The position numbers and the translations under genes were made by a program. Below, piece by piece: positions 4,963 through 19,077 of a stretch of DNA of 64,000 nt (positions within the stretch are counted from its first letter, which is position 1; each line of letters begins with the position of its first letter). This stretch comes from Janibacter sp. Soil728 (GTDB taxonomy: Bacteria > Actinomycetota > Actinomycetes > Actinomycetales > Dermatophilaceae), in contig NZ_LMRZ01000003.1 of NCBI RefSeq assembly GCF_001428305.1, forward strand, positions 1 to 64,000. The letters run 5' to 3'. Under the pieces are notes generated by a model. The model saw only the letters and a program-made list of their open reading frames with translations, was not told the origin of the DNA and did not search any database.

Positions 4963-5057
4963 GCGCGGAAGCCTACGTCGCCGCGCGGCGGACGCTCCCA
5001 CCGCCCGAGCCACTCGCTGAGTAGGATCGACCTCAGCAAATGGGGCCTCGGCCTCAT

Positions 5058-5095
5058 GTAACACAGGTGAAACATGTGGGTCATGGCCGAGAAAC
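5058..5095 (+). promoter_or_regulatory. GlnR box upstream of glnA
   Basis: Four 5-mers, GTAAC, GAAAC, GTCAT and GAAAC, are separated by exactly 6 nt each. They match the actinobacterial GlnR consensus GTnAC-n6-GAAAC-n6-GTnAC-n6-GAAAC except for one base in the third block. The box ends 11 nt before a TAGCGT -10 candidate, as expected for a nitrogen-responsive activator of glutamine synthetase. Binding itself is inferred. Confidence 0.85.
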
Positions 5096-5105
5096 CGTCC
5101 GTGTC

Positions 5106-5111
5106 TAGCGT
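5106..5111 (+). promoter_or_regulatory. glnA -10 promoter element
   Basis: TAGCGT fits TANNNT and lies 11 nt after the GlnR box. The implied transcript would carry a leader of about 55-60 nt that includes a short reading frame (5142-5189) overlapping the glnA start. Confidence 0.5.
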
Positions 5112-5141
5112 GATCACCAACAGTTGAAGCGGGAGGTCACA

Positions 5142-5172
5142 GTGGCCCGCCGCCCCACCCCAGGAGGATGGT

Positions 5173-5189
<17 letters not shown>
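5142..5189 (+). CDS. Possible 15-residue leader peptide overlapping the glnA start
   Basis: GTG at 5142 has GGGAGG 5 nt upstream and opens a 15-codon frame reading [15 protein letters not shown], ending at TGA 5187-5189. It contains the glnA ribosome-binding site and overlaps the glnA TTG at 5173 in another frame. The good ribosome-binding site suggests it may be translated and couple to, or compete with, glnA. It may equally be chance in GC-rich DNA. Confidence 0.35.
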
Positions 5190-6597
<1,408 letters not shown>

Positions 6598-6614
6598 GCC
6601 GACAGGGCAAGCGA

Positions 6615-6654
6615 AAGGCCCCAGATCCCCGAAATACCGGGGGTCTGGGGCCTT
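6615..6654 (+). terminator. Rho-independent-type hairpin after glnA, inside attL flank
   Basis: AAGGCCCCAGA pairs with TCTGGGGCCTT, extended by an inner CCCCG/CGGGG pairing around AAATAC. It lies just inside the satellite beyond attL. It therefore gives glnA and the convergent integrase gene a terminator brought by the element, while the presumed native one is now at 16858. Confidence 0.75.
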
Positions 6655-6666
6655 CGTCGTGCTCGG

Positions 6667-7728
6667 CTACTTGGCCGCTGGCCGCAGATTGGCCGCAGGC
6701 CGGTCCGCGAAGACGGCCGACATGGCTGCACGGCTGCGATCGTCGGCGTCCGGCATGAGGTGGCCGTAAGTGTTCAAGGTCGTGGTGGCCGAGGCGTGGC
6801 GCAGGCGGGCCTGCACGACCTTGACGTCGAGGCCGCCGGCGATGAGGGCCGAGGCGAAGAAGTGCCGCAGGTCGTGGTGACGGAACGCCTCTGGCAGGCC
6901 CTCCACCCCACCTCGGGCGGCCCGGATGGCGCGCTCGAGGGTGTGTGGCGCCACGGGCTTGCCGAAGGGGTCGGTGAGGATCGTTTCGCCGTGCATGTGC
7001 TCGGCCAGCTCGGCCGCGACCTCGACCGGGAGCGGCACCGTCGCGGCCGACGACGCCGATTTGAGGGGCCCGCCACCCCACTGGACCTCTGGGGTCACGC
7101 TGCCGGTCTCCAGGTCAACGTCCCCGGGTCGCAGACCGCAGACCTCACTGATGCGCAGGCCGGCGAAAGCACCGAGGAGGATGGCTGGCCGCAGGTGTTC
7201 GGGCATCGCGTCGTGGAGGCCCCAGACCTGCTCTGCCGTCGCGACATACGGCCGCTGGGCACCCTGGGGAGGTGCGGTCCGCCGGGAGCACGGAGAGCGC
7301 GGGATCAGGCCGTCGTGGGCCGCGTCGGCCATGACCTGCGCCAGCCTCCTGTAGATCGCGTACCGGGTCGAGGGTGCGTACCTCTCCCCCAGCTTCGCCA
7401 CCCAGGCCGACACATCGCTGGGTCGCACATCTCCGAGCCGCCGGTCCCCGAACTCGGCCACGATGACGCGGCAGTGGACCTGCGCTTGGCGAAGGGTCGA
7501 GGCCCTCCTCGATGCATACCCCTCGAGCCACCGCTCGACCCATTGGGCCACCGTGGTCTCCGACGCCTTGCGGTCGAGGTGGTCGCCGCGCTGGACGGCC
7601 GCCTCGCCTGACTTCACCCACGCCCTGGCGTCGGCCTGGCGCTTGAAACGTCGGTGATGCTCCCGGCCGCGCTCATCCCGATATCGGGCTCGATAGGTGC
7701 CGTTCTCCTGCCGCCTGACGCTGCCCAT
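6667..7728 (-). CDS. Tyrosine-type site-specific integrase of the satellite
   Basis: Catalyses integration and excision between attP and the glnA 3' end. The 353 residues show an N-terminal arm-binding region (GTYRARYRDERGREHHRRF, about 10-28), a SAM-like core-binding domain (about 60-150) and the catalytic domain. Its residues are Arg192 (AGLRISE), Lys223, His285-Arg288 (HDLRH), His311 (RHAS) and nucleophile Tyr321 (NTYGH). AGGAG stands 8 nt before the ATG. The last codons (RPAANLRPAAK) are written by tandem TTGGCCGCA-type repeats that recur next to attR, so the gene end doubles as a probable arm-type binding site. Divergent from xis. Confidence 0.96.
   Translation of the reverse strand: MGSVRRQENGTYRARYRDERGREHHRRFKRQADARAWVKSGEAAVQRGDHLDRKASETTVAQWVERWLEGYASRRASTLRQAQVHCRVIVAEFGDRRLGDVRPSDVSAWVAKLGERYAPSTRYAIYRRLAQVMADAAHDGLIPRSPCSRRTAPPQGAQRPYVATAEQVWGLHDAMPEHLRPAILLGAFAGLRISEVCGLRPGDVDLETGSVTPEVQWGGGPLKSASSAATVPLPVEVAAELAEHMHGETILTDPFGKPVAPHTLERAIRAARGGVEGLPEAFRHHDLRHFFASALIAGGLDVKVVQARLRHASATTTLNTYGHLMPDADDRSRAAMSAVFADRPAANLRPAAK
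6679..6697 (+). repeat. Left copy of a 19-bp candidate integrase arm site
   Basis: TGGCCGCAGATTGGCCGCA occurs here, within the integrase 3' coding end, and again at 16633-16651 near attR. Each copy is two near-identical TTGGCCGCA units 11 bp apart. Direct repeats at both ends, close to the att cores, are typical of integrase or excisionase arm sites. Binding is inferred. Confidence 0.6.
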
Positions 7729-7910
7729 GCTGGCCGCTCCTAACTTCGACTAGCCCTGACTCTAACCCCACTGCTACGTTCTAGTTAGACGTCCTGGTTG
7801 TTCCACAGAACTTCTCCTTTCGGGTCGAGGAAGCCTCTCCGAGAGCAGCGCACCAATCCGGGAAGCCCGGTACGTGTGATCCATGCAGATCACTACCGAT
7901 GGGATCCCCC
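7729..7910. promoter_or_regulatory. Divergent int/xis control region
   Basis: The 180 bp between integrase and excisionase hold repeated CTAAC/GTTAG motifs. These include CTAAC just upstream of int, and a TCTAAC...GTTAGA inverted pair at about 7760-7790. This is the expected place for the lysogeny or induction switch. No repressor gene is recognisable in the element, so control may depend on Xis, Int or a helper-phage product. Confidence 0.4.
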
Positions 7911-8087
7911 ATGTCCACACGCCTCTTCACGAAGCCCGAGGTCGCCGAGCGCCTCCGCATCCCCGTCTCGACGCTCAACTATTGGAGGAGCCGGGGAGAG
8001 GGTCCGCGTTTCGTGCGCGTCGGCCGTCGCCTCGCCTGCACCGAAGCCGACCTGGAGGCGTTCATCTCCTCCCTCGCGGCCGCCTGA
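7911..8087 (+). CDS. Excisionase/MerR-type helix-turn-helix protein (Xis)
   Basis: A 58-residue winged helix-turn-helix of the excisionase (HTH_17) type. LFTKPEVAERLRIPVSTLNYWR is split by the turn, then GPRFVRVGRRLACTEADLEAFI. Such proteins bend DNA at att arms to direct excision, and may repress the divergent int. ATG at 7911 has GGGA 6 nt upstream; an in-frame ATG at 7899 would add four residues. The gene heads the rightward satellite operon. Confidence 0.9.
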   Translation: MSTRLFTKPEVAERLRIPVSTLNYWRSRGEGPRFVRVGRRLACTEADLEAFISSLAAA

Positions 8088-8120
8088 GCACCCTTCCCCC
8101 ACAACGAGATCGGAGTACCC

Positions 8121-9797
8121 ATGATTGACGCCGACATCACCACCGCACTGGCCCGCCTCGACGCCCACAACGACCGCTGCCAGGAGGCCCGCGCCCGCAT
8201 CGAGGAAGAGCACCTCGCCTACGCCCGCGAGGCCGTCGGGCTGCCTTTCGGCCCCCTCGACCACGACGGGGAGCGTCGCCTCGCTGACGCCCTGCGCGAG
8301 CGCAAGAACCGAGAGCCCGACTGGAGCCTGCCCATCGGCGACTTCAAGGATCCACTGGACTGGCGAGAGATGCGCGCAGACACCGACGACCGGGGCCACA
8401 TCGTCCTGATCGACGGCGAGCGCACCATCCCCTCCGACCCGATGGTCGAGCGTCGCCTGTCTGGCCTGCTGGCCGAAGCTGAGGACCGCCACGAGGCCGA
8501 CCACGGCCAGGCCACCAACCCGTGGTGCGCCTCCTGCGAGATTCGCTTCCTGCGATCGCCCTACGGCGACAACGATCTTGCGTCCGCCGGCTGGACCGAG
8601 AGCGAGCTGCGGGAGAGCGCACAGACCACCCTGCGGGCCCGTGCCCGAGCCACCCTGCTGAGGACGCGGGGAGTCGTCCCAGACGCCACCCCGGCGGACC
8701 CGGAGACCGTGGAGACCCTCGGTGGGTCCTGGGCGGCGCAGGATCTCACCGACGTACTCGACGGCACTTTCGAGCCCACCGTGCCCTGCATCTTCGAGCG
8801 CGAGGATGGGCAGGCCCTGTTCTACGCGGGGATGGTCCACTCCATGCACGGCGAGTCCGAGTCCGGGAAGTCGCTCGTCGCACAGTGGGCCTGCGCGATC
8901 GAGCTCCAGATGGGCGAGAGCGTCGTCTACATCGACTACGAGAGCGACAGGGAAGAGGTGGTCGGCCGCCTACTGATGATGGGCTGCAGCAAGGACTCGA
9001 TCCTCGACGGCTTCACCTACGTCCACCCCGAGGAAGACCCCGCCGCGGACCGGGCCAACTTCGAGGCTCTGCTGCGGACCAAGCCCTCCTTGGTCATCAT
9101 CGACGGCGTCACCGACTCCCTCGGACTGGCCGGGCTGTCCTCGATGGACAACGACGATCTGGCGCGCTGGTCGAGGAACCTGCCTCGGCGCATCGCCAAG
9201 CGCACCGGCGCCGCCGTCGTGCTGATCGACCACGTCACGAAGTCCACGGAGGGCAGGGGCCGGTTCGCTCTCGGAGGACAGGCCAAGATGTCCGGCCTCG
9301 ACGGCGCGGCGTACACCGTCGACGTGATCTCCCCCGCAGGAAAGGGGCGGTTTGGCCGCCTCTCCCTGCGAATCGCCAAGGACCGCCCCGGCGGGATCCG
9401 AGGAGCCTGTGGGGAGCCCCGGAAGTCGGATCGCACGCAGGAGGCCGCCATCGTCGTGATCGACGGCACCGTCGACGGGCAGATCGGCGTGAGGGTCAAG
9501 GCCCCCGATGAGCTGGCAGACCCGGCCGTCATCGAGCGTCGCCACCAGTCCAAGGCGGCCGGCATCATGCGCAACCTCATCGACGAGATTGAAGCCCACC
9601 CTGGCTCCACGAAGAACGCCCTCATTGACTCGGTCAAGGGCAACAAGGAGGAGAAGAGCACCGCACTGCGGTCCCTCATCGAAGACGGATACGTCCGGGT
9701 GGACACCGGCGCTCGCAACGCCCACCACCACCACATCGGAGACAAGCCCTTCGCCATCACCCCCGATCTCCTGCCCACCATCCAGACGGAGGACTGA
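8121..9797 (+). CDS. RepA-like AAA ATPase (replication/helicase protein of the satellite)
   Basis: A 558-residue protein with an AAA_25/RepA-type RecA-like ATPase core. The Walker A HGESESGKS is at 243-251, YIDYES follows, then a Walker B in LVIIDGVTDSL and VLIDHVTKS. The N-terminal 200 residues are charged and carry an isolated CASC pair (CX2C). The C-terminal 110 residues read as a winged-helix domain (IEAHPGSTKNALIDSVKG, then ALRSLIEDGYVRVD). Such proteins act as hexameric replicative helicases or loaders in plasmids and phage satellites. GGAG precedes ATG 8121. It is the only candidate for autonomous replication in the element. Confidence 0.85.
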   Translation: MIDADITTALARLDAHNDRCQEARARIEEEHLAYAREAVGLPFGPLDHDGERRLADALRERKNREPDWSLPIGDFKDPLDWREMRADTDDRGHIVLIDGERTIPSDPMVERRLSGLLAEAEDRHEADHGQATNPWCASCEIRFLRSPYGDNDLASAGWTESELRESAQTTLRARARATLLRTRGVVPDATPADPETVETLGGSWAAQDLTDVLDGTFEPTVPCIFEREDGQALFYAGMVHSMHGESESGKSLVAQWACAIELQMGESVVYIDYESDREEVVGRLLMMGCSKDSILDGFTYVHPEEDPAADRANFEALLRTKPSLVIIDGVTDSLGLAGLSSMDNDDLARWSRNLPRRIAKRTGAAVVLIDHVTKSTEGRGRFALGGQAKMSGLDGAAYTVDVISPAGKGRFGRLSLRIAKDRPGGIRGACGEPRKSDRTQEAAIVVIDGTVDGQIGVRVKAPDELADPAVIERRHQSKAAGIMRNLIDEIEAHPGSTKNALIDSVKGNKEEKSTALRSLIEDGYVRVDTGARNAHHHHIGDKPFAITPDLLPTIQTED

Positions 9798-9799
9798 CC

Positions 9800-10027
9800 A
9801 TGTGCATCACCGGCAAGCGCGCCTACTACTCACGGGCTGAGGCCAAGAAGAAGGCCAAGGACATGAGCCGACGCACGGGCGAGCGGGTCATCCCCTACCG
9901 CTGCGATGTGTGCCCGGACTGGCACATCGGCAAGCCACCCCCCGGCCTCATCCGGGGTGAGGTCTCCCGCTCGGAGATCCACCAGCACAGGTACGACCGT
10001 GCCCGCGCCCTGGGCTACGAGCAGTGA
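9800..10027 (+). CDS. Small phage-type CxxC protein
   Basis: A 75-residue basic protein. A lysine-rich helix (RAEAKKKAKDM) precedes YRCDVCPDWHIGK, a half zinc-knuckle with CX2C and a WHIG motif common in actinophage early genes. Its C-terminal half is HQHRYDRARALGYEQ. It starts 2 bp after the ATPase stop and shares GTGA with the HNH gene, so it is part of the same operon. Function unknown; nucleic-acid binding is a guess from charge and CX2C. Confidence 0.75.
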   Translation: MCITGKRAYYSRAEAKKKAKDMSRRTGERVIPYRCDVCPDWHIGKPPPGLIRGEVSRSEIHQHRYDRARALGYEQ

Positions 10028-10365
10028 CCATGACCTGCTGCCTCGAGTGCGGGGAGCTGAGCGACGAGGCCCGATGCGAACAGCATCGGGCCTCGCCCGT
10101 TGAGCGGCGCGGCTCGAGCCCACGCGAGCGGGGGTACGACGCCGCATGGGATCGCCTCTCACGGAGTGCTCGAGCAGCACAACCTTGGTGCTCAGACTGC
10201 GGAGCAACCTCAAGGCTCACTGCCGACCACAAGCCCTCCGCGTGGACGCGCAGGGCCAAGGGCCTGCCGCTGCGCCTCATCGACGTGGACGTCGTGTGCA
10301 GTGACTGCAACTGGGCCCGAGGCTCGAGCCGACCGGGGTCTCCTCGCGCCGACCCTGGGGGGTAG
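10024..10365 (+). CDS. HNH endonuclease next to the terminase
   Basis: A 113-residue phage HNH nuclease. WCSDCG and VVCSDCNWARG give the two CX2C zinc pairs, with LTADHKPS carrying the catalytic His. A further N-terminal CLECG pair is present. In HK97-type cos phages and in capsid-forming islands, an HNH protein beside the large terminase is needed for cos cleavage. That is the likely role here. GTG at 10024 overlaps the previous stop (GTGA); ATG at 10030 is the alternative. Confidence 0.88.
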   Translation: MTMTCCLECGELSDEARCEQHRASPVERRGSSPRERGYDAAWDRLSRSARAAQPWCSDCGATSRLTADHKPSAWTRRAKGLPLRLIDVDVVCSDCNWARGSSRPGSPRADPGG

Positions 10366-10508
10366 GGGGTGCGGGGTCCGAGCGGGACCGGGACGCAGAG
10401 GACGAATCTTCGACTCTCTCGAACACCTGTGCGACGAGGAGCCCCAGACCCCCCTCTCAGGGCCTCAAGCACCTACCTCACGCATGAGATAACGACCCTC
10501 TTTGCCCC

Positions 10509-10556
10509 ACTGGGTCTGACTGGGTCTGACTGGGTCTAAAAGCCCCCAGACCCAGT
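10509..10556 (+). repeat. Three ACTGGGTCT direct repeats plus one inverted copy
   Basis: ACTGGGTCT occurs at 10509-10517, 10519-10527 and 10529-10537, and its complement AGACCCAGT at 10548-10556, so the last direct copy can form a 9-bp stem with it. The 10-bp spacing puts the units on one face of the helix, as in protein-binding arrays. Confidence 0.75.
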
Positions 10557-10570
10557 GACCACGACTGGGT

Positions 10571-10601
10571 CTGGGTCCCCCCTCCCTTTAGGGGGACCCA
10601 G
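10571..10601 (+). terminator. 11-bp perfect stem-loop upstream of the terminase gene
   Basis: CTGGGTCCCCC (10571-10581) pairs with GGGGGACCCAG (10591-10601) around a 9-nt pyrimidine-rich loop. It may terminate early transcription before the packaging genes or be part of the packaging site. Confidence 0.55.
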
Positions 10602-10703
10602 TCCCGGTCAGCGCTGGAGAATCGGTGACCGGGTCCGAGAGACCTGGACCCGGTCGATTTTGACCCTCAACCTCTACTTTAGACTTTGCGATACCCTCTC
10701 CTC

Positions 10704-12173
10704 ATGGGGAAGCCGGGACCGAAGTCTCAGATCACAGCTCCCCCGCTCGACCTCACTGGAGCACCAGAGCGGGGATGGGAGCGGGTGGTCTGGTTCGCCC
10801 AACGCTTCCTGCTGGTCCCCAAGGGCACCGGCGCGAAGACCCCGTTTACCCTGCGGCCCTGGCAGGTCGACATCGTGCGGGAGTTCTTCCCGGCCGCTGG
10901 TCGGCCCCGGCAAGGACTGCTGTCCCTCCCCCGCGGCAACGGCAAGACGGCTCTGGCCGCCGTGCTGGCCCTCTACGCGCTGTTTGCTGACGAGCAGGAG
11001 GGAGCGCAGGTTCTGGTGGTCGCATCCGACGAGAGGCAGGCGGGGCACGTCCTGCGGGCTGCGCGTCGGATGATCGAGCTGTCTCCTGAGCTGGCCGAGC
11101 GCACTCACCTGTACGCCGATCGGATCCACTGCCCGCAGACCGACTCGGAGATGCGGGCGCTCCCTGCCGACGAGGGCGCCCTCCAGGGATGGGATCCCAC
11201 GCTCATGATCGTGGACGAGCTGCACGTCGTCACGGAGAAGGTGTGGGAGGCCGTCACGAGCGCCTCCGGCAAGCGGGCCGAGTCGCTCACGCTGGCGATC
11301 TCCACGCCGGCCGACAACACCGAGTCTGTGATGTGGAAGCTGGTGCAGTGGGGCCGTGAGGGCACCGACCCCTCGGAGTTCGTCTACGTCGAGTACAGCG
11401 CCCCGGATGGCTGCGCTCTGGACGACGAGGAGGCCTGGGCTGTCGCGAACCCTGCCCTGGGTGACTTCCTCGCCATCGACGCGCTGCGGAGCCAGAAGCG
11501 CACCATCCGCGAGGAGGCCTTCCGCCGGTACCGCCTGGGGCAGTGGGTCGGGAGCGAGAACACCTGGCTCCCCTTCGACTCCTTCGCACCGCTGGCCCGC
11601 CCTCACCTGATCGGCAAGCGGGAGCGCGTGGTCCTCGCCTTCGATGGGAGCGCCTCGGGCGACTCCACGGCCCTGGTGGGCTGCACGCTCGGTCCGACGC
11701 CCTACGTCTTCGTGGTGGGCCTGTGGGAGAACCCGACGCCCGGCAAGGCCGGCTGGAGGGTGCCACGCGAGGAGGTCGACACCACGGTGAAGGACGCCTT
11801 CAAGCGCTTCAACGTCGTGGAGATGGCCTGTGACCCCTGGGGCTGGCGCTCTGAGATCGAGTCCTGGGCAAAGCGCCACGGGGAGCGCCGCGTCATCGAG
11901 TGGAACACCGCGCACGCCTCACGGATGGCACCGGCCACGGACCGCATGTACCAGCTGGTGGTCACTGGTGGGCTCGAGCACGACGGAGACCCCCGGATGA
12001 TCGCGCACTTCGACAACGCGGTGGCGAAGAACACCAACCTCGGTGACCTCATCAGCAAGGACAAGAAGAACAGCACTCGGAAGATCGACTCGGCCGTGGC
12101 GGCCATCGTCGCCGCAGACCGGGCCGCCTTCCACACCCAGAAGCCCGCTCGCACAGGAAGTTTCGCCTCATGA
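10704..12173 (+). CDS. Terminase large subunit (TerL)
   Basis: The DNA-packaging motor of the satellite; 489 residues. The ATPase has Walker A LPRGNGKT (75-82), Walker B LMIVDELH and the coupling motif LTLAISTP. The C-terminal RNase H-like nuclease has LAFDGSASGDS and CDPWGW acidic residues, then DSAVAAIVAADRA. It resembles the phage lambda/HK97-type TerL of actinophages. ATG at 10704 is preferred over a TTG at 10686; TACCCT lies 6 nt upstream, suggesting a leaderless start. Its stop overlaps the portal ATG (ATGA). No small terminase was found. Confidence 0.95.
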   Translation: MGKPGPKSQITAPPLDLTGAPERGWERVVWFAQRFLLVPKGTGAKTPFTLRPWQVDIVREFFPAAGRPRQGLLSLPRGNGKTALAAVLALYALFADEQEGAQVLVVASDERQAGHVLRAARRMIELSPELAERTHLYADRIHCPQTDSEMRALPADEGALQGWDPTLMIVDELHVVTEKVWEAVTSASGKRAESLTLAISTPADNTESVMWKLVQWGREGTDPSEFVYVEYSAPDGCALDDEEAWAVANPALGDFLAIDALRSQKRTIREEAFRRYRLGQWVGSENTWLPFDSFAPLARPHLIGKRERVVLAFDGSASGDSTALVGCTLGPTPYVFVVGLWENPTPGKAGWRVPREEVDTTVKDAFKRFNVVEMACDPWGWRSEIESWAKRHGERRVIEWNTAHASRMAPATDRMYQLVVTGGLEHDGDPRMIAHFDNAVAKNTNLGDLISKDKKNSTRKIDSAVAAIVAADRAAFHTQKPARTGSFAS

Positions 12174-13456
12174 CCACTACCAAGACCCTCGAGGCCCTCA
12201 CGGCCTCCCTCGACACTCGGCAGGCCGCCATCGCGGAGAACGAGACCTACCTCTCGGGCAAGCAGCGCCTGGCGTTCATGTCCTCGCAGGCCCGCGAGGC
12301 CACGAAGCTGGGCCGGATGGCGACCAACGTCCCCCGGCTGGCCGTCACCTCCTTGGCCGAGCGCCTGCGGGTGACCGACCTGCACCTGTCTGGCCAGCAC
12401 GATGAGGCCCTGTGGGCCGACTTCCGGCGCAACGACCTCGACCAGACGCTCGGGCTGGCCTTCCGGGAGGCGCTCGGCCTGGGCTCCTCCTACGCCATCG
12501 TGTGGGACCGCACCGGGCGGGCCCGGCCGCGGGTGAGCATCGAGTCTGCGCAGCACGTCACGGTGCAGACCGACCCCGGCACCGGGGAGACCCTGGCCGC
12601 GGTGAAGCGGTGGAACGTGCCCGGCGGGAGCCGTGCAGTCCTCTACCTCCCCGACGCGGTGATCCCCTTCACCGCCGACGGCGAGAACGCCACCATCGGC
12701 TGGCGAGAGGGCGAGAGCATCCCCAACCCGCTCGGTGCGGTGCCGGTGGTGGAGTTCCGCAACGGTGACCGGCTCCTGGGCCCCGGCGTCTCCGAGATCG
12801 AGGATCTCAAGCCGCTGGTGGACGCCCTGAACAAGGTGCTGGCCGACATGATGGTCGGCTCTGAGTTCTACGCCCGGCCCCGTCGCTGGGCGACCGGCGT
12901 AGAGCTCGGCGAGGACGAGGAGGGCCGCCCGGTCAACCCCTTCCCCGAGGGCGACCGGATGATGATCTCCGAGGCCGTCGAGGCCCGTTTCGGCTCCCTG
13001 CCGGCTGCGGACCTGGGCTCCTACGAGGCTGCGGTGAAGATCCTCCTGGGGCAGATCATGGCCGTGTCGGCCCTGCCGGCGCACTACATCGGCGTCCTCA
13101 ACTCCAACCCCACCAGCGCCGACGCAAACCGCTCGGCCGAGGCCTCCTTGGCCGCTCGGGCGCAGGCTCGGCAGGCGCAGTTTGGTCGGCCCGTCGAGGC
13201 CATCGGCCGGCTCATGCACGCGGTGCGTACCGGCACCGATCCCGAGGCCGCCGACGTCTCGGTGGTGTGGGCCGACCCGGCCACGCGCTCGGTGGCGCAG
13301 GAGGCTGACGCGGTGGTGAAGCTGCACGCCGAGGGCCTGCTGCCCACGGACTACGCGCTGGCCCGCCTGGGCTACTCCGGCGACGAGATCGCCCGTATCC
13401 GCCTGGCTCGCCTGCAGGAGAGCGTGGAGCGTGCGCGGCTGGAGCCGCCGGCATGA
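12170..13456 (+). CDS. Phage portal protein (SPP1 gp6-like)
   Basis: Forms the dodecameric vertex through which DNA enters the head. 428 residues with the portal layout: N-terminal helices (SQAREATKLGRMATNVPRL), a wing with SYAIVWDRTG and YLPDAVIPF, the stem/clip VPVVEFRN, and the long crown helix region GQIMAVSALPAHYIGV, then NPTSADANRSAEA. Its start and stop each overlap the neighbouring gene by ATGA. The gene keeps usual full length, so it is likely functional. Confidence 0.92.
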   Translation: MTTTKTLEALTASLDTRQAAIAENETYLSGKQRLAFMSSQAREATKLGRMATNVPRLAVTSLAERLRVTDLHLSGQHDEALWADFRRNDLDQTLGLAFREALGLGSSYAIVWDRTGRARPRVSIESAQHVTVQTDPGTGETLAAVKRWNVPGGSRAVLYLPDAVIPFTADGENATIGWREGESIPNPLGAVPVVEFRNGDRLLGPGVSEIEDLKPLVDALNKVLADMMVGSEFYARPRRWATGVELGEDEEGRPVNPFPEGDRMMISEAVEARFGSLPAADLGSYEAAVKILLGQIMAVSALPAHYIGVLNSNPTSADANRSAEASLAARAQARQAQFGRPVEAIGRLMHAVRTGTDPEAADVSVVWADPATRSVAQEADAVVKLHAEGLLPTDYALARLGYSGDEIARIRLARLQESVERARLEPPA

Positions 13457-14274
13457 CGGAGCCTCTGCTCGATTACCGGACGCTGGAGCTCCTGCGGGAT
13501 GGGGCCGTGGCGATCTTCGAGCCGGTCTGGGGCTTCCGCAAGGACGTCCCGGCCGACCAGTGGGTCGACCTGGCGGCCCGGACGATGGTCTCCACCTCCC
13601 TGCAGGGTGAGGCCCTGGGCCGCTCCTACGGCTCCTACGCCACGACGGTGGACGGGAGCGCCCTCCTCCCGCCGGACATCGCCACGACGGCCCGCAGGCC
13701 CGCGCCGGACGACTTCGAGCCGCGCTCCTCCCGTGCGCCCAAGCCGGATCCGCTCATCGACGTGGAGGAGCGCTCCCGGGAGCTGGAGGGCCAGTACGTC
13801 TCTGCCCTGCGCACCATTGGTGGGCTCTCTAGTGGCTTTGAGGACGCCGACCGCCCGCGGGTCGATCGGCTCATCGGGGATGAGGCCGTGGCCGCTGTGC
13901 AGCGCGGCTATCAGGACGGTCTACGCCTCTACGACCAGGAGGACGTGGAGTACGAGGAGTTTGGGCAGGACACCGGCGGCCGCCCCGAGGTGGACGCGCT
14001 CGGCCGCGTCCGACCGAGCACGACTTCCACGAGGGTTCGCGGCTACCGGCGCGGGATCAACCCCGGCTGCTGCGAGCTGTGCTTCTGGCTGTGGAAGGAA
14101 GGGCGCGTCTACCCGATCGACCAGCCGATGCACCGGCACACCGGATGCCGGTGCGTGCCGGTACCCACCACCGACCCTGTGGGCCGGTGGTCCCTGAGCA
14201 ACGAGGAGATGGATCTCCTCGAGGCGCTCTACGAGCGTTACGTGAAGACCGACGATGAGGAGGAGTCAGCATGA
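13453..14274 (+). CDS. MuF-like minor head (capsid morphogenesis) protein
   Basis: A 273-residue protein between portal and scaffold, the position of the SPP1 gp7/MuF family. The C-terminal region has the typical cysteine-rich core CCELCFWLW, then HRHTGCRCVPVP, in which clustered Cys and His probably bind metal. ATGA overlaps join it to both neighbours. MuF proteins help assemble the procapsid and may enter the host with the DNA. No toxin domain is visible. Confidence 0.82.
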   Translation: MTEPLLDYRTLELLRDGAVAIFEPVWGFRKDVPADQWVDLAARTMVSTSLQGEALGRSYGSYATTVDGSALLPPDIATTARRPAPDDFEPRSSRAPKPDPLIDVEERSRELEGQYVSALRTIGGLSSGFEDADRPRVDRLIGDEAVAAVQRGYQDGLRLYDQEDVEYEEFGQDTGGRPEVDALGRVRPSTTSTRVRGYRRGINPGCCELCFWLWKEGRVYPIDQPMHRHTGCRCVPVPTTDPVGRWSLSNEEMDLLEALYERYVKTDDEEESA

Positions 14275-14678
14275 CCGAGCAGGAGCAGACCGTGGAGCAG
14301 GACCAGGAGCAGGAAGGGGCCGACCAGGAGCAGGAGCAGGAGCCCGACACCTTCCCGCGTGACTACGTGGAGAAGCTGCGCAAGGAGAGCGCGGGGCACC
14401 GCACGTCCGCCCGTGAGGCCACCGAGGCCCTGCTGCCGCTGCAGGAGCGCCTGCATGGGGCACTGGTGGGCGCTACGGGCCGTCTGGCCGACCCGTCCGA
14501 CCTCCCCTTCGACCCGGCGCACCTCGAGGACGAGGACGCCCTGACGGCCGCGATCGACGCCCTCCTCGAGGCCAAGCCTCACCTGGCCCCCCGGCGCGTC
14601 TCTGGGGACGTGGGGCAGGGACTGGGTGGCCCCCAGTCCGGCGTGGACCTTGGCGGGATGCTGCGCACGCGAGCCTGA
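14271..14678 (+). CDS. Capsid scaffolding protein
   Basis: A 135-residue acidic protein. Its first 30 residues are a Glu/Gln-rich run; then DTFPRDYVEKLRKESAGHR, typical of actinophage scaffold proteins, is followed by a helical segment (REATEALLPLQERLHGAL) and a glycine-rich tail. It guides capsid shell assembly and is lost on maturation. It lies directly before the capsid gene, separated by a strong hairpin. No protease gene is present, so scaffold exit may not need cleavage. Confidence 0.85.
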   Translation: MTEQEQTVEQDQEQEGADQEQEQEPDTFPRDYVEKLRKESAGHRTSAREATEALLPLQERLHGALVGATGRLADPSDLPFDPAHLEDEDALTAAIDALLEAKPHLAPRRVSGDVGQGLGGPQSGVDLGGMLRTRA

Positions 14679-14686
14679 ACCCTCAA

Positions 14687-14723
14687 CCTGTGGTCGAGGG
14701 TTTCTGTTACCCTCGACCACAGG
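14687..14723 (+). terminator. 15-bp perfect stem-loop between scaffold and capsid genes
   Basis: CCTGTGGTCGAGGGT pairs perfectly with ACCCTCGACCACAGG around TTCTGTT. It starts 9 nt after the scaffold stop and lies 78 bp before the capsid ATG. It could attenuate read-through, stabilise a processed capsid mRNA, or end the upstream transcript so that the capsid gene is expressed from its own promoter. Confidence 0.75.
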
Positions 14724-14801
14724 AGCCCGGCGCTCCTCCTGAACAACGGCTAGATGCCCGCGTGACCACTTCCGCTGCATCTCGTCCTCAGGAGGACTCC
14801 A

Positions 14802-15671
14802 ATGGCTCTCGACACCACCACCGCTACCGAGCTGACTTCCGAGCAGGTCCAGACCGTCCTGGTCCAGCCGCTCGAGGCCCGCTCCACCTTCCTCTCCTCC
14901 GGTGTGCGCATCATCGACACCGCCGGCCCCCTTCGCCTGCCCAAGATGGGTGGAGCGACCGCTCCCCAGTGGCACGGCCAGAACGAGCAGATTTCCGAGG
15001 TCGACCCCGACTTCGACGAGATCACGCTCCTGCCCTCGACGATGAAGTCGGTCAAGACCCTGACCCGCTTCTCCAACGAGCTGGCGCGGCAGTCCGTCGT
15101 GGCTCTGGACGAGGCCCTCAAGGCCCGCCTGGTCAAGGACGTGGCCGACACCATCGACGCCCAGCTCCTGAGCGCAGGCGGCGACGGCGTCACGATGCCC
15201 AAGGGCCTGTTCGGCTACGCCGGCACGCAGTCGGTGCCCGTGGGTGGAGACCTCACGCTCGACCACCTCATCGAGGCTGAGGGCCTGGCCCTGGCTGGCA
15301 ACGTCAACTCCGAGGCTCTGAAGTGGGTCATGACCCCGCGGGAGTTCACCAAGCTCCGGAAGGTCAAGGACACCTCGGAGCGCTACCAGCTCCAGCCCGA
15401 CCCGACCCGCGCCGGTGGCTTTACCCTCTTCGGTCACTCGGTCATCGTCACCGGCCGCGTCCCCGACACCACGGGCGCGACGCCGACGGCCCGCGTCGGT
15501 CTGGTCGACTTCTCGCAGGTCGTCGTGGCCCGCGACGCTTCCCCGAGCGTCAAGATCCTCGACCAGACCTTCGGCGACTTCGACCAGCAGGCCATCCGCG
15601 TGGTGGCCCGCTACGACGCGGCCCCGCTCAACTCCGAGGCCGTCATCGTCCTCTCGGGCATCACCGTCTGA
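14802..15671 (+). CDS. Major capsid protein, HK97 fold
   Basis: A 289-residue HK97-type shell protein. LTSEQVQTVLVQPLEARS is the N-arm. VRIIDTAGPLRLPKMGG and STMKSVKTLTRFSNEL mark the E-loop and spine. PREFTKLRKVKD and GFTLFGHSVIVTG mark the A-domain, with AIRVVARYDAAPLN and VIVLS at the end. No N-terminal delta domain is seen, consistent with the separate scaffold gene. AGGAGG lies upstream. The protein lets the element build its own heads, the key difference from satellites that remodel helper capsids. Confidence 0.94.
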   Translation: MALDTTTATELTSEQVQTVLVQPLEARSTFLSSGVRIIDTAGPLRLPKMGGATAPQWHGQNEQISEVDPDFDEITLLPSTMKSVKTLTRFSNELARQSVVALDEALKARLVKDVADTIDAQLLSAGGDGVTMPKGLFGYAGTQSVPVGGDLTLDHLIEAEGLALAGNVNSEALKWVMTPREFTKLRKVKDTSERYQLQPDPTRAGGFTLFGHSVIVTGRVPDTTGATPTARVGLVDFSQVVVARDASPSVKILDQTFGDFDQQAIRVVARYDAAPLNSEAVIVLSGITV

Positions 15672-15673
15672 CG

Positions 15674-15793
15674 ATGAGCGCGCTCACCAATCTGGAGGCC
15701 TCCCCCTCGGCCTCCTGCGCCCGCCGAGGGGGACGGTCCGACCTCTGCTCCTGGTCTGGCTGTCCCTCTCGGTGCGGGGCGGTGAGCCCATGA
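15674..15793 (+). CDS. Possible 39-residue protein after the capsid gene
   Basis: ATG at 15674, 2 nt after the capsid stop, opens a 39-codon frame (MSALTNLEASPS...) with three cysteines. Its stop overlaps the next ATG as ATGA, like the other junctions in this operon. That overlap is the main support. It has no recognisable domain and may exist only to couple translation. Confidence 0.45.
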   Translation: MSALTNLEASPSASCARRGGRSDLCSWSGCPSRCGAVSP

Positions 15794-15984
15794 GCGAGCC
15801 CGTCCCCGTGCTGGCACTGGTGGGCCCCTCGGTCCTCCAGGAGGCCCGCGCACGCGGCCTGCGGGGCGGCGTCGAGGTGGTCTGGTCTCCCGAGCGTGGA
15901 TGGCTCTGTGCCGACCACACCGCCCAGCCCTGCATCCACACCGAGGGCCTCCCCGGCCCCGGACTTCCTCAGGAGGACTCATGA
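15790..15984 (+). CDS. Small unknown satellite protein
   Basis: A 64-residue protein (MSEPVPVLALVGPSVLQEAR at the start) with TWSP-like aromatic/proline segments (VVWSPERGWLCADH) and two isolated cysteines. ATGA overlaps at both ends place it in the head operon between capsid and head-tail adaptor. That slot in actinophages often holds a small head-decoration or capsid-associated protein. No family recognised. Confidence 0.65.
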   Translation: MSEPVPVLALVGPSVLQEARARGLRGGVEVVWSPERGWLCADHTAQPCIHTEGLPGPGLPQEDS

Positions 15985-16295
15985 GCGCACCGACCGGCCA
16001 GACCGTGGCCGACTTCCTCGGAGCGGGCGACGACGTGGAGCTGGTGGCCCTGGCCTCCCAGCACGTCCTGATCGTCACCGCGATGGCACGGACCTATGTG
16101 CGCGGCAACGGCTTCACTGAGGGCGACGTCTCCGAGGACATCGCGGCCGTCATCACCACGGCCACGGCCCGGATGGTCGCCAACCCCGAGCAGATCAACA
16201 CCCAGATCGGCTCCACGGCTGTGTGGGGTGGCTTCCAGGGCTGGTCCCTGGCTGAGCTCTTCGTCCTCAACTCGTGGCGGGGGCGGGCGGCATGA
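15981..16295 (+). CDS. Head-tail adaptor (gp6/gp15-like connector)
   Basis: A 104-residue helical protein of the phage head-tail connector type. TVADFLGAGDDVELVALASQH, cut by its turn, is followed by VIVTAMARTYVRGNGF, EDIAAVITTATARMVANP and a terminal GFQGWSLAEL segment. These match small adaptors that sit below the portal. Its ATG overlaps the previous stop, and its own stop overlaps the next start. Confidence 0.8.
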   Translation: MSAPTGQTVADFLGAGDDVELVALASQHVLIVTAMARTYVRGNGFTEGDVSEDIAAVITTATARMVANPEQINTQIGSTAVWGGFQGWSLAELFVLNSWRGRAA

Positions 16296-16612
16296 TCCGG
16301 GTGATGCATGAGCGGTGCGACCTCGAGGCATCCGAGGTCGATCGGTTCGGGGACACCACCTGGGTCCTCAAGGCGTCCAACGTCCCCTGCGAGATGGTCC
16401 CGCTGGACTCGAGCGAGCAGACCCAGCGCGGCGTCGCCGTCACGACCACCTACCAGTGGGTGACGCGCTCGACCCTGATCCCCAACGTGCAGACCAACTG
16501 GCGCATCATCTGGCGCGGGAGGGACTTCAACGTGGTGGGTCACGTCGAGGACTACTACCTGCGGGGCCGGCTGCAGCACCGGCAGGCCGTCGTGAAGTTC
16601 ATCCAGGGCTGA
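16292..16612 (+). CDS. Head-closure / head-tail joining protein
   Basis: A 106-residue beta-rich protein in the position of phage head-completion proteins. The final strands WRIIWRGRDFNVVGHVEDYY and RQAVVKFIQG resemble head-tail joining (gp16/HK97 gp7) proteins. ATG at 16292 overlaps the adaptor stop. This is the last gene of the element; the next phage gene would be a tail terminator, and it is missing. The satellite thus appears to make finished heads that need foreign tails. Confidence 0.75.
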   Translation: MIRVMHERCDLEASEVDRFGDTTWVLKASNVPCEMVPLDSSEQTQRGVAVTTTYQWVTRSTLIPNVQTNWRIIWRGRDFNVVGHVEDYYLRGRLQHRQAVVKFIQG

Positions 16613-16632
16613 CCGGACGAGGGAACCTCGTT

Positions 16633-16651
16633 TGGCCGCAGATTGGCCGCA
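16633..16651 (+). repeat. Right copy of the 19-bp candidate integrase arm site
   Basis: An exact second copy of TGGCCGCAGATTGGCCGCA, in the non-coding stretch between the last satellite gene and attR, in the same orientation as the left copy at 6679-6697. Confidence 0.6.
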
Positions 16652-16755
16652 AGCGGGCTCACGATTGCTCGCATCCACTAGCACGCTCTAGACGCTTCCA
16701 CACCGGATTTCCGGTGTTTCTCGCACCGGCTGACATGGGCTCACACCCTCCGATT

Positions 16756-16786
16756 AGTTCGAGATGTACTTCGACATCTGAGCCGA
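16756..16786 (+). repeat. attR, 31-bp copy of the glnA 3' end
   Basis: Exact copy of 6572-6602, in the same orientation but with no glnA sequence in front of it. It marks the right end of the satellite. The sequence beyond is the original downstream region of glnA. Confidence 0.92.
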
Positions 16787-16857
16787 GCCGAGCGCCAGCG
16801 AGGGTCGGGTCAGATGTCGAACAGAAAACTCAGTGACATCTGATCCACGCCACACGC

Positions 16858-16895
16858 CGAAGGGCGGGACTCCCGATCGGGGGTCCCGCCCTTCG
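16858..16895 (+). terminator. Presumed native glnA terminator displaced by the satellite
   Basis: CGAAGGGCGGGAC and GTCCCGCCCTTCG form a 13-bp stem. An inner CCCGATCGGG extends the pairing. It lies 72 bp after attR, so before integration it would have stood just behind the glnA stop. Confidence 0.75.
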
Positions 16896-16904
16896 TCATG
16901 GCTT

Positions 16905-16991
16905 GGTTGTGTGTTGAACCGGTAGCCCAGGATGTCGGCATGCCCTGGGTAGCCCTGCCGGCACGCAGGGCTACCTGTTCAACACACAACC
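16905..16991. repeat. Nested inverted-repeat element
   Basis: Outer arms GGTTGTGTGTTGAAC (16905-16919) and GTTCAACACACAACC (16977-16991) are perfect 15-bp complements. Inside are GGTAGCCC twice and its complement GGGCTACC once, so the last can pair with either copy and give two alternative folds. The 87-bp unit stands alone between glnA's terminator and the epimerase gene. It could be a small structured RNA or a miniature repeat element. Confidence 0.7.
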
Positions 16992-17087
16992 TTCCAGCGA
17001 TTGGGCTCCCTCACCCGCGGTCCCCGGACGGCGACCGGTAGGTGACGTCCACCTGACATCCCCCGCCTCGCAGTGCACAGTGGAGTC

Positions 17088-17864
17088 ATGAGCACACGAC
17101 GCATCCTCATCACCGGAGCGGCAGGCGGGGTGGGGACGTTCCTCACCGAGCGTCTCAAGGACCAGTACGACATCACCGGCCACGACCTGGAGCCGCAGCC
17201 CGACGCGCACCCGGTGATCCTCGGGGCCGACCTCACCGACTACGACGCCGTCCGCGGGGTCATGGACGGCATCGACACGGTGGTCCACCTGGCCGGGGCC
17301 GCGTCGCCCGAGGCGTCCTGGGAGGCCGTGCTCAACGCCAACATCATCGGCACGCGCAATGTCCTCGAGGCAGCACGTGACGCCGGTGTGCGGCGGGTCG
17401 TCTTCGCCTCGTCCAACCACGCGATGGGCATGTACGACCGTCACGAGCAGTGGCCGGTCTACCCGGACACCGTGCCGCGACCGGATTCCTTGTACGGGGT
17501 CTCCAAGGTCTTCGGCGAGACGATCGGTCGCTACTACTACGACGAGTACGGCCTGTCCTTCATCGCACTGCGGATCGGGTGGGTCTCCGGCGACCCGACC
17601 GTCTCCGATGTCGACGTCCTGCACGCCATGTGGCTCAGCGAGCGTGACACCGCGCAGGTCGTGCGGTGCGCGATCGAGGCAGAGGTCGACTTCGGGATCT
17701 ACTACGCGATCTCCGACAACCCCAACCGTCGCTGGGCGATGACCAACACCATGCTCGAGCTCGGCTACCGACCGCAGGACTCCTGGGCCGACGAGGCGCC
17801 GGCCGATGAGCCCGTGGTCGAGGGCGGTGTGCCCGTCGCCGACACCTGGCCCAAGGGGTCGTAG
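17088..17864 (+). CDS. NAD-dependent epimerase/uronate dehydrogenase-like extended SDR
   Basis: A 258-residue Rossmann-fold enzyme. GAAGGVGTFL gives the NAD-binding glycines, DLTDYDAV binds adenosine, VVHLAGAAS and FASSNHAMGMY follow, and YGVSK is the catalytic Tyr-Lys pair. The layout matches uronate dehydrogenases and related sugar oxidoreductases (SSNHA...G motif). An upstream GTGGAG serves ATG 17088; the longer frame from 17073 lacks such support. It stands alone, so substrate is open. Confidence 0.85.
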   Translation: MSTRRILITGAAGGVGTFLTERLKDQYDITGHDLEPQPDAHPVILGADLTDYDAVRGVMDGIDTVVHLAGAASPEASWEAVLNANIIGTRNVLEAARDAGVRRVVFASSNHAMGMYDRHEQWPVYPDTVPRPDSLYGVSKVFGETIGRYYYDEYGLSFIALRIGWVSGDPTVSDVDVLHAMWLSERDTAQVVRCAIEAEVDFGIYYAISDNPNRRWAMTNTMLELGYRPQDSWADEAPADEPVVEGGVPVADTWPKGS

Positions 17865-17910
17865 GTCGCGGGGTGAGGTCGGCCCGGCGTGACATGGGAG
17901 ACTTCCCCCA

Positions 17911-19077
17911 GTGAGCAGTGTGTGGACGGCGCGAGGCATGCCCGCGCTCTTGTGGGCGACCTTCCTGGGGTTCAGCGGCTTCGCTGTCCTCATGCCGGTC
18001 GCTCCCCTGTGGGCGGTGCACGGCGGCGCTGACGAAGGGGGTGCCGGCCTCGTCAACGGCGTGCTGCTGGCGGTCACCGTCCTCACGCAGTTCACGGTGC
18101 CGGCGATGCTGCGCCGCTTCGGCTGGGGCCCGACACTCGCGGTCGGCTTGATCCTCCTCGGCGCTCCGTCTCTCGGCTTCATCGCCAGCGACTCGCTCGC
18201 CACCGTCCTCTCCCTGTCCGTCGTGCGCGGCGTCGGCTTCGGCATCCTGACGGTCACCGGCAGCGCCGCCGTGGCCGAGCTGTCGACGCCCGAGACCCGC
18301 GGCAAGGCGGTCGGTGCCTACGGGCTGGCGATCGCCGGGCCACAGGTCGTGCTGCTCCCCCTCGGCTCATGGGTCGCCGAGACGGTGAACTTCAGCGTCG
18401 TCTTCGTCGTCGGTGCGCTCCCCCTGCTCGGGGTGCCCGCGGCGCTGGCGCTCGGTCGGGTCGTCGACGCCTTCCCGGCACACAGCGAGACCCCGGGCGC
18501 CACGCCGGGAGCCAGCACCCACCGCGCCACCATCACCCTGCTGCGCCCGATGATGCTGCTGCTGGGCGTGACGGTCGCAGGCGGCGCAGTCCTCACCTTC
18601 GGCCCGCAGATGGTGCGCAACCCCGCGATCGTCATCCCCGCCCTGGCTCTCATGGAGCTGATGGCCGCCATCTTCCGCTGGTGGATCGGCGGCGTCGCGG
18701 ACCGGTACGGAGCAGAGCGCTTCCTCGCCCCCTTCGTCCTGCTGACCGTGCTCGGTGTCGGCGGTATCGCCTGGGCCATCCACGAGCAGTCCGTGCCCGT
18801 GCTGCTCATCGGCGCGGTCCTGCTCGGCAGCGCCTACGGAGGCCTGCAGAACCTCACCCTCGTCATCTCCTTCGCCTCCGTGTCGCGACGGCACATCGGG
18901 CTGGCCAGCTCGATCTGGAATGTCGGCTTCGACCTCGGCTCCGGGCTCGGCTCCGTCATGGTGGGCGCGATCGCCGCCGGCCACGGCTTCCCCACGGCGC
19001 TGGCAGTGACAGCGGCCCTCGCGCTGCTGACGCTGCCGTTGGCGCTCGTGCGGCGGGGGCTTCGTGACGGTCGCTGA
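17911..19077 (+). CDS. MFS transporter
   Basis: A 388-residue major facilitator with about 12 hydrophobic helices. ARGMPALLWATFLGFSGFAV opens helix 1. The loop 2-3 motif is degenerate (MLRRFGWGPTL), and RWWIGGVADRYGAERF is the loop 8-9 equivalent. Substrate is unknown; drug or sugar efflux is usual for this type. GTG start at 17911. Its last codons and stop lie inside the first unit of the 35-bp tandem array. Confidence 0.85.
   Translation: MSSVWTARGMPALLWATFLGFSGFAVLMPVAPLWAVHGGADEGGAGLVNGVLLAVTVLTQFTVPAMLRRFGWGPTLAVGLILLGAPSLGFIASDSLATVLSLSVVRGVGFGILTVTGSAAVAELSTPETRGKAVGAYGLAIAGPQVVLLPLGSWVAETVNFSVVFVVGALPLLGVPAALALGRVVDAFPAHSETPGATPGASTHRATITLLRPMMLLLGVTVAGGAVLTFGPQMVRNPAIVIPALALMELMAAIFRWWIGGVADRYGAERFLAPFVLLTVLGVGGIAWAIHEQSVPVLLIGAVLLGSAYGGLQNLTLVISFASVSRRHIGLASSIWNVGFDLGSGLGSVMVGAIAAGHGFPTALAVTAALALLTLPLALVRRGLRDGR

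What the first reader, a model, noticed from the sequence alone, without database searches (positions are those of the whole stretch)
6572..16786. Tail-less, capsid-forming phage satellite in an actinobacterial glnA gene
The 10,184-bp element encodes integration, excision, replication, packaging and complete head-assembly functions. It stops exactly after the head-closure gene, with no tail, lysis or repressor genes. The ordered ATGA overlaps and full-length motifs argue against a decayed prophage. Capsid-forming phage-inducible islands, which make their own heads and take only tails from a helper phage, share this plan; mycobacterial phiRv1/phiRv2 are similar in size and content. Each gene call is from sequence; the lifestyle is inferred.
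Basis: partly seen in the sequence, partly recalled or inferred. Interest (0 to 1): 0.88.

Follow-up and report, generated by a model that had tools for sequence, protein, structure and literature searches.

The report
Tail-less capsid-forming phage satellite
This 10-kb stretch of an actinobacterium's chromosome looks like a phage parasite that builds its own DNA-filled heads but must borrow tails from another phage; it belongs to a widespread group of very similar size, which makes it a good new example of a known kind rather than a new kind.

Summary
An exact 31-bp repeat (6572-6602, 16756-16786) bounds a 10,184-bp insert at the end of glnA carrying int, xis, RepA-like, HNH, TerL, portal, MuF-like, scaffold, capsid, adaptor and Hc1 genes. 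Only 143 bp separate Hc1 from attR: no room for tails.

It is no lone remnant. Of 39 portal relatives in named genomes, 25 are bounded by direct repeats, 20 of these overlapping tRNA genes. The 25 are 9.6-11.8 kb (SD 0.44 kb); 24 measured end 0.6-2.5 kb after the capsid gene. No tail family was found there. One of them and one further locus sit in glnA of other genera. Contigs with identical ends and an exact tandem duplication suggest mobility. Phage records held only distant capsid, portal and terminase matches.

Best reading: a capsid-forming satellite that borrows helper tails. The helper step is inferred; no small terminase was recognised. Similar mycobacterial elements are in print (PMC10654092), and this element is already in IMG/VR.

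The parts
6572..6602 (.). attL, 31-bp direct repeat at the 3' end of glnA
   Evidence: exact repeat
6667..7728 (-). tyrosine integrase, 353 aa
   Evidence: PF00589 3.3e-18; relatives 51-60% identical next to glnA in the same family
7899..8087 (+). AlpA-like excisionase/regulator, 62 aa
   Evidence: PF12728 6e-10, phrog_66 9e-9
8121..9797 (+). RepA-like replicative ATPase/helicase, 558 aa
   Evidence: PF13481 1e-9, phrog_695 8e-27
9800..10027 (+). small protein, 75 aa, function unknown
   Evidence: phrog_9124 3e-5, unknown function
10024..10365 (+). HNH endonuclease, 113 aa
   Evidence: phrog_144 7e-9
10508..10655 (.). candidate replication origin (packaging site not excluded): six copies of ACTGGGTC in both orientations and a hairpin at 10571-10601
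   Evidence: all six copies in the element lie here; other repeat motifs at the same place in L075, L076, L083, L086
10686..12173 (+). terminase large subunit (start probably 10704, 489 aa)
   Evidence: phrog_9 1.9e-95, PF03354, PF20441
12170..13456 (+). portal protein, 428 aa
   Evidence: phrog_104 4.6e-97, PF05133
13453..14274 (+). MuF-like minor head protein, 273 aa
   Evidence: phrog_1522 1.6e-9 over the C-terminal 69 aa; the name MuF rests on motif recall
14271..14678 (+). head scaffolding protein, 135 aa
   Evidence: phrog_233 3.6e-6
14802..15671 (+). major capsid protein, HK97 type, 289 aa
   Evidence: PF05065 3e-39, phrog_10 4e-40; alignment A3
15790..15984 (+). conserved small ORF of 64 aa, unknown
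   Evidence: 44-68% identical ORFs in L075, L076, L079
15981..16295 (+). head-tail adaptor (Ad1) candidate, 104 aa
   Evidence: no HMM hit itself; 34-65% identical to post-capsid genes of relatives, a set in which phrog_137 and phrog_442 adaptor families are hit
16292..16612 (+). head closure protein Hc1, 106 aa
   Evidence: phrog_501 8.7e-6
16756..16786 (.). attR, 31-bp direct repeat

Best explanation
It is an integrated, apparently intact capsid-forming phage satellite of a Janibacter species. Shown by sequence: it sits between direct repeats at glnA, encodes integration/excision, replication, packaging and head genes up to the head-closure protein, and stops there. Inferred: when a tailed helper phage grows in the cell, the element excises (Int plus Xis), replicates from its own Rep and repeat-array origin, fills small heads of its own make with its ~10-kb genome using its own TerL and HNH nuclease, closes them with Ad1 and Hc1, and the helper's tails dock on Hc1; the helper also supplies lysis. 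The narrow genome size of the whole group is what a fixed small head would impose.
For: Exact att repeats, single site in 13 of 15 sister genomes. Open head and packaging genes. 25 of 39 named-genome relatives have repeat-bounded ends: 9,607-11,827 bp, mean 10,662, SD 436; 555-2,500 bp after the capsid gene in the 24 measured; in 20 of 25 a repeat copy overlaps a tRNA gene, 14 anticodons. The post-capsid genes of 20 of those 25 elements hit only adaptor, closure and connector families; many had no hit. TerL is under purifying selection: pN/pS 0.20, 0.27, 0.31, 0.38 against L075, L086, L083, L076. Signs of movement: three IMG/VR contigs with identical ends, units of 10,741, 11,956 and 9,785 bp; an exact tandem duplication with a 9,752-bp unit (9,766 identical bases) in G036. 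Phage records held only distant head genes. MulchRoom, a Streptomyces satellite seen by electron microscopy with a small head and a helper-length tail (PMC10690885, passages), has a head module that also ends with adaptor and stopper. In the host genome PF10145 and phrog_58 (tape measure) found nothing and the single phrog_991 hit lies among genes that look like housekeeping genes by eye, so a helper would probably come from outside.
Against: No helper is known; nothing here shows induction, particles or borrowed tails. No small terminase subunit was recognised, unlike the published description of capsid-forming PICIs. MuF and Ad1 are weakly called. Hc1 has no match in the phage records even at E 0.01, so the tail partner cannot be guessed from it. 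pN/pS is near or above 1 in two comparisons (Rep against L086 1.06, Hc1 against L076 1.18) and 0.5 or more in many distant ones; synonymous sites look saturated. The contigs with identical ends could be terminally redundant linear genomes, and the 77-bp ends of L147 could be att repeats; the tandem copy could be an assembly effect. Three tape-measure families do not cover all tails, and three weak terminase-type hits elsewhere in the host genome were not examined.
Confidence: 0.84

Rival explanations
1. A defective prophage that lost its tail, lysis and repressor genes by deletion.
For: Tail and lysis genes are missing, and a survey classed 47% of predicted actinobacterial prophages as remnants (PMC10023795, passages).
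Against: The same end point recurs in 25 repeat-bounded relatives at 14 tRNAs, glnA and a few other places; the head genes are open; no phage record shares close head genes (four more queries in 87-90).
Confidence: 0.07
2. An autonomous mini-virus that makes a tail-less or unusually short-tailed particle by itself.
For: It has its own replication and head genes; one relative with identical contig ends, L076, has a fibre-like ORF and no integrase found.
Against: No lysis, tail or fibre family hit in the window element; Ad1 and Hc1 are tail-docking parts; MulchRoom with the same end point carries helper-length tails (PMC10690885).
Confidence: 0.06
3. A domesticated head-making element, such as a gene-transfer agent, kept for the host's benefit.
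For: Head genes without tails, conserved size.
Against: Keeps Int, Xis, Rep and att sites; its capsid gene has no relative at E 1e-10 in 14 of 15 sister genomes; related copies sit at many sites.
Confidence: 0.02

Closest known systems
Capsid-forming PICIs (cf-PICI)
   Same: Own capsid, portal, connectors, large terminase and HNH, helper needed only for tails (as described in PMC10690885, passages); integrase, AlpA and own replication as shared features are recalled.
   Different: No small terminase subunit recognised; no direct sequence comparison with a cf-PICI was made here; helper induction untested.
Mycobacterial candidate PICIs, including phiRv1 and phiRv2 (PMC10654092, passages)
   Same: Integrase plus capsid gene; several integrate at tRNA genes, some with replication, terminase and scaffold genes. 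19 of the 39 relatives found here have titles naming Mycobacterium, Mycolicibacterium, Mycolicibacter or Mycobacteriaceae.
   Different: The window element uses glnA; phiRv sequences were not compared; phiRv1 uses a serine integrase.
Streptomyces satellites MulchRoom and MiniFlayer (PMC10690885)
   Same: MulchRoom: TerL, portal, scaffold, capsid, adaptor, stopper in this order, then no tail genes; its particles carry helper-length tails.
   Different: Portal 23% and 26% identical, capsid 24% to MiniFlayer (E 0.002), integrase 26% to MulchRoom, no TerL match at E 0.01; both carry terS and long terminal repeats, lack primase homologues (PMC10690885 section 12), and are 14.8 and 17.4 kb; MiniFlayer has a fibre gene before its adaptor.

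Membership tests
capsid-forming PICI | integrase, excisionase/AlpA and att repeats | tested here: met
capsid-forming PICI | own capsid, portal, head maturation and connector genes | tested here: met
   the maturation protease/MuF call is weak and the adaptor rests on relatives
capsid-forming PICI | own packaging genes: HNH, TerL and TerS | tested here: inconclusive
   HNH and TerL met; no TerS hit among the window proteins scanned or among the 25 of 64 families shown for upstream genes of relatives; a diverged TerS such as the 75-aa protein is not excluded. So it is described as working like a cf-PICI, not filed as one.
capsid-forming PICI | no tail or lysis genes | tested here: met
   143 bp between Hc1 and attR; no tail or lysis hit
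capsid-forming PICI | induced by a helper phage, packaged with helper tails | not testable with these tools
   needs bench work
phiRv1/phiRv2-like elements | close capsid or portal sequence relationship | not tested
   phiRv sequences were not fetched; likeness of kind taken from PMC10654092 passages
Mulch/Flayer satellites | clear sequence relationship of the head and packaging genes | tested here: not met
   portal 23-26%, no TerL match at E 0.01
complete prophage | tail, lysis and repressor genes | tested here: not met
   no space after Hc1

The most novel reading that the evidence does not exclude
An Actinobacteria-wide family of satellites with its own capsid lineage, not seen at close identity in any full-length phage record, a near-constant ~10.7-kb genome set by its head, repeated switching of integration site and origin repeats, and helper-tail dependence: a separate satellite family that arose independently of the described cf-PICI radiations and packages without a TerS.
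Probability: 0.38. Interest if true: 0.7.

Novelty: new member of a known kind. Interest (0 to 1): 0.5.

Why it matters
Such elements are easily filed as remnant prophages. The constant size, constant end point and recurring att boundaries argue that they are a working class of tail-stealing satellites across Actinobacteria, Mycobacterium included, so gene transfer by borrowed tails may be common there. It also gives a system in which to ask how a satellite head is matched to a foreign tail and how DNA is packaged without a recognised small terminase.

Tried and rejected
Deletion remnant, autonomous mini-virus and gene-transfer agent were considered and ranked low (see rivals). A helper was sought in the host genome with PF10145, phrog_58, phrog_991 (tape measure) and PF05133, phrog_2 (portal, terminase): only the element's own portal; three weak terminase-type hits outside the element were not examined; the phrog_991 hit, with one stop inside, lies among genes that look like housekeeping genes by eye. 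A helper was sought through Hc1 and gave nothing. Rfam gave nothing in 5000-18000. A cos-site reading of the HNH-TerL gap was considered; I prefer an origin because the repeat motif differs between elements whose TerL is 77-85% identical to the window's, while Rep of L086 is only 26% identical. A small E. coli record that matched one relative's capsid weakly is annotated with tail and lysis genes. A 17-bp repeat pair 19 kb apart in L018 was not accepted as att. L023 (15 bp) and L024 (17 bp) are weak att calls but are counted in the 25.

Against or limiting: 14 of 39 relatives showed no acceptable repeat, several on short contigs. The gene caller was a home-made codon score trained on the window and missed genes; 5 of 25 elements (L016, L019, L021, L040, L041) gave no post-capsid ORF. 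In one search, 57 of 60 called ORFs were given, 59 of 68, 67 of 95, from 14 viral contigs and within 7 kb of the capsid gene; two long contigs (L117, L135) were not included. One search lists all 25 families found; others (64 families; 38) show the first 25 only, so a weak single tail match there cannot be excluded. Searches kept the best 80 of 147 and of 204 relatives. Shuffles for the repeat counts kept base composition only. In the upstream genes of relatives two of 59 proteins match a repressor family, phrog_4, so absence of a repressor is not general. Capsid of L021 matches 167 phage records, 37 of them Mycobacterium phages, at low identity in the rows listed.
Full report
What is there. 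The 31-bp direct repeat at 6572-6602 and 16756-16786 is exact and 10,184 bp apart; there is no third exact copy in the 3.64-Mb genome. glnA (5173-6597) is open to its stop codon, which lies inside the repeat, so integration leaves the gene whole. Of 15 other genomes of the genus, 13 carry the 27-bp site once and 2 not at all (up to 2 mismatches). Between the repeats lie, in order, Int (minus strand), then on the plus strand an AlpA-like regulator, a RepA-like ATPase, a 75-aa protein, an HNH nuclease, TerL, portal, a MuF-like minor head protein, scaffold, an HK97-type capsid protein, a 64-aa ORF, an adaptor candidate and Hc1. After Hc1 143 bp remain before attR. The listed frames are open. The host genus is inferred to be Janibacter: the same-genus handle G011 has a contig of 32,830 bases with the same head genes as the 32,830-base record of Candidatus Janibacter merdipullorum (L018, L108).

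Relatives. A portal search of named genomes returned 39 loci, in Mycobacterium and its kin (19 of 39 by title), Nesterenkonia, Brevibacterium, Gordonia, Nocardia, Tsukamurella, Arsenicicoccus, Arachnia and others. The order HNH, TerL, portal, scaffold, capsid, adaptor, with Int, Xis, Rep and MuF found in part of them, recurs. For 25 of 39 a direct repeat of 15-58 bp brackets the element. These 25 measure 9,607 to 11,827 bp, mean 10,662, SD 436. In 20 of 25 a repeat copy overlaps a tRNA gene found by ARAGORN, 14 different anticodons in all, which supports the boundaries independently. The distance from capsid stop to the end of the downstream repeat is 555-2,500 bp (median 818, n = 24). Of 32 post-capsid proteins scanned (one from the window, 31 from 20 of the 25 elements) the only families hit were head-tail adaptor, head closure and head-tail connector; the window's adaptor candidate and others had no hit. 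In 12 of the 14 loci without accepted repeats, 57 of 60 downstream ORFs hit 25 families, none a tail family. Of 95 ORFs behind the capsid gene in 14 viral contigs, 67 were scanned; none of the 25 families shown of 38 is a tail family. The method does find tape-measure genes where present (L094).

glnA. Loci L045-L060 hold integrases 51-60% identical to this one in other genera of the family; glnA lies beside the integrase in 15 of these 16. I fetched 17 regions (L091-L107). Two carry the same head module: L091, the same contig as L034 (Arsenicicoccus cauae, repeats 9,953 bp apart, capsid 63%), and L092 (9,737 bp apart, capsid 69%). Six more (L094, L096, L097, L100, L101, L102) show a repeat of the glnA end 6-12 kb away but no hit to the window's head genes; in the other nine no repeat was found in the stretch held. 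L096, L097 and L100 have a small terminase gene (phrog_1496, 1e-15 to 3e-23) and L094 a tape-measure-like ORF. So one integrase clade serves several sorts of islands at glnA. A capsid profile hit 11 of 186 genomes of the family, own included, three of them weakly (E 1e-20 to 1e-26).

Viral collections. IMG/VR already holds this element as IMGVR_UViG_2643221703_000001 (9,946 bp, capsid and TerL 100%). Four scans gave 139 loci on 136 contigs; 125 of the 136 are no longer than 13 kb. Contigs in IMG/VR may be fragments or software-trimmed proviruses. The 79 loci with both Int and capsid have median length 10,700 (two contigs counted twice). Three contigs have identical ends of 127, 127 and 77 bp, giving units of 10,741, 11,956 and 9,785 bp, as expected of circular or terminally redundant molecules; for the third, att repeats are also possible. 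L086 encodes a serine integrase (phrog_95). In genome G036 a relative is present as an exact tandem duplication: 9,766 identical bases at an offset of 9,752.

Distance from phages. In 50,697 phage records the capsid protein matches 29 records, at about 25% or less in the 25 rows listed, none of these an actinophage; the portal matches 1,849 records, at 35% or less in the 25 rows listed, and TerL 2,931, at 33% or less in the 15 listed; every match is below 60%. Two more portals and two more capsid proteins of relatives stay below 37% and 30% in the rows listed, though the capsid of L021 does reach 37 Mycobacterium-phage records. Rep matches 14 records, none over 80% of its length. Hc1 has no match at E 0.01. 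A recent deletion of a phage in that collection is therefore very unlikely. MulchRoom and MiniFlayer portals are 23% and 26% identical.

Candidate origin. The 320-bp gap between HNH and the TerL ORF holds six copies of ACTGGGTC or its complement, all six that occur in the element (composition-keeping shuffles of the stretch: mean maximum 1.9, highest 4), and folds strongly as single-stranded DNA (z -4.3) with a hairpin at 10571-10601. At the same place L075, L076, L083 and L086 have arrays of a different motif each (GATGCA 7, CTGGAC 10, GTGGGA 10, ACCGGA 9 copies; shuffle mean maxima 2.3-3.3, highest 5-7) and hairpins (z -2.0 to -3.3) whose loops share a CTYTAG/CCTTAG-like core by eye. Because TerL of these elements is 77-85% identical to the window's while the motifs differ, I read this as an origin bound by a fast-changing Rep; a packaging site is not excluded. 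In L034 and L092, for example, the stretch before TerL looks like coding sequence (HNH), so an origin there would lie elsewhere (by eye).

Selection. Against the four closest relatives TerL has pN/pS 0.20-0.38; the capsid 0.37-0.58, the portal 0.40-0.55; Rep against L086 is 1.06 and Hc1 against L076 1.18. Synonymous differences are 0.4-0.6 per site in most comparisons, so these ratios are upward-biased.

Mechanism and status. Shown: integration at glnA, open head and packaging genes, absence of tails, constancy of size and end point. Inferred: excision, replication, self-made heads, docking of helper tails at Hc1, helper lysis. The nearest experimental parallel is MulchRoom, whose head module also ends at adaptor and stopper and whose particles show small heads with helper-length tails (PMC10690885, passages and section 12).

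Literature. Candidate PICIs with integrase and capsid genes, phiRv1/2 among them, are described in Mycobacterium (PMC10654092, passages); a survey of actinobacterial prophages suggests that many elements under 15 kb could be satellites and says experimental validation lags (PMC10023795, passages); cf-PICI capsids form three radiations (PMC11389934, passages). Six searches listed no paper whose title or shown start of abstract describes a capsid-forming satellite at glnA or in Janibacter; the library lacks most subscription papers. Hence: a well-supported new member of a known kind, with a case for a separate family that a joint tree could test.

Noticed in passing
L096, L097, L100 (glnA 3' ends in other genera): Islands with the same integrase clade at glnA carry a small terminase gene but no hit to the window's head genes: possible terS-only satellites sharing the capsid-forming satellite's site.
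   Followed up: partly
L094:8919-10580: A 9.7-kb glnA-bounded element with a 553-aa tape-measure-like protein (phrog_3981 1e-14) and no hit to the window's head genes.
   Followed up: no
L076 (10,868 bp, 127-bp identical ends): Relative with no integrase found and a collagen-like fibre ORF between capsid and Hc1, reminiscent of the non-integrating MiniFlayer.
   Followed up: partly
G036:C1:76835-96352 (L237, L238): Exact tandem duplication of a related satellite, unit 9,752 bp; assembly effect not excluded.
   Followed up: yes
window 10663-10698 and 14679-14714: Similar 36-bp stretches (72%) before TerL and before the capsid gene, possibly paired late promoters; the second is partly conserved in L075 and L083 by eye.
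   Followed up: partly
G022 (L239, L240): Two related satellites at different places in one genome.
   Followed up: no
L102: A glnA-bounded 12-kb island with Int and two long ORFs that look like restriction-modification genes (by eye, no family search).
   Followed up: no
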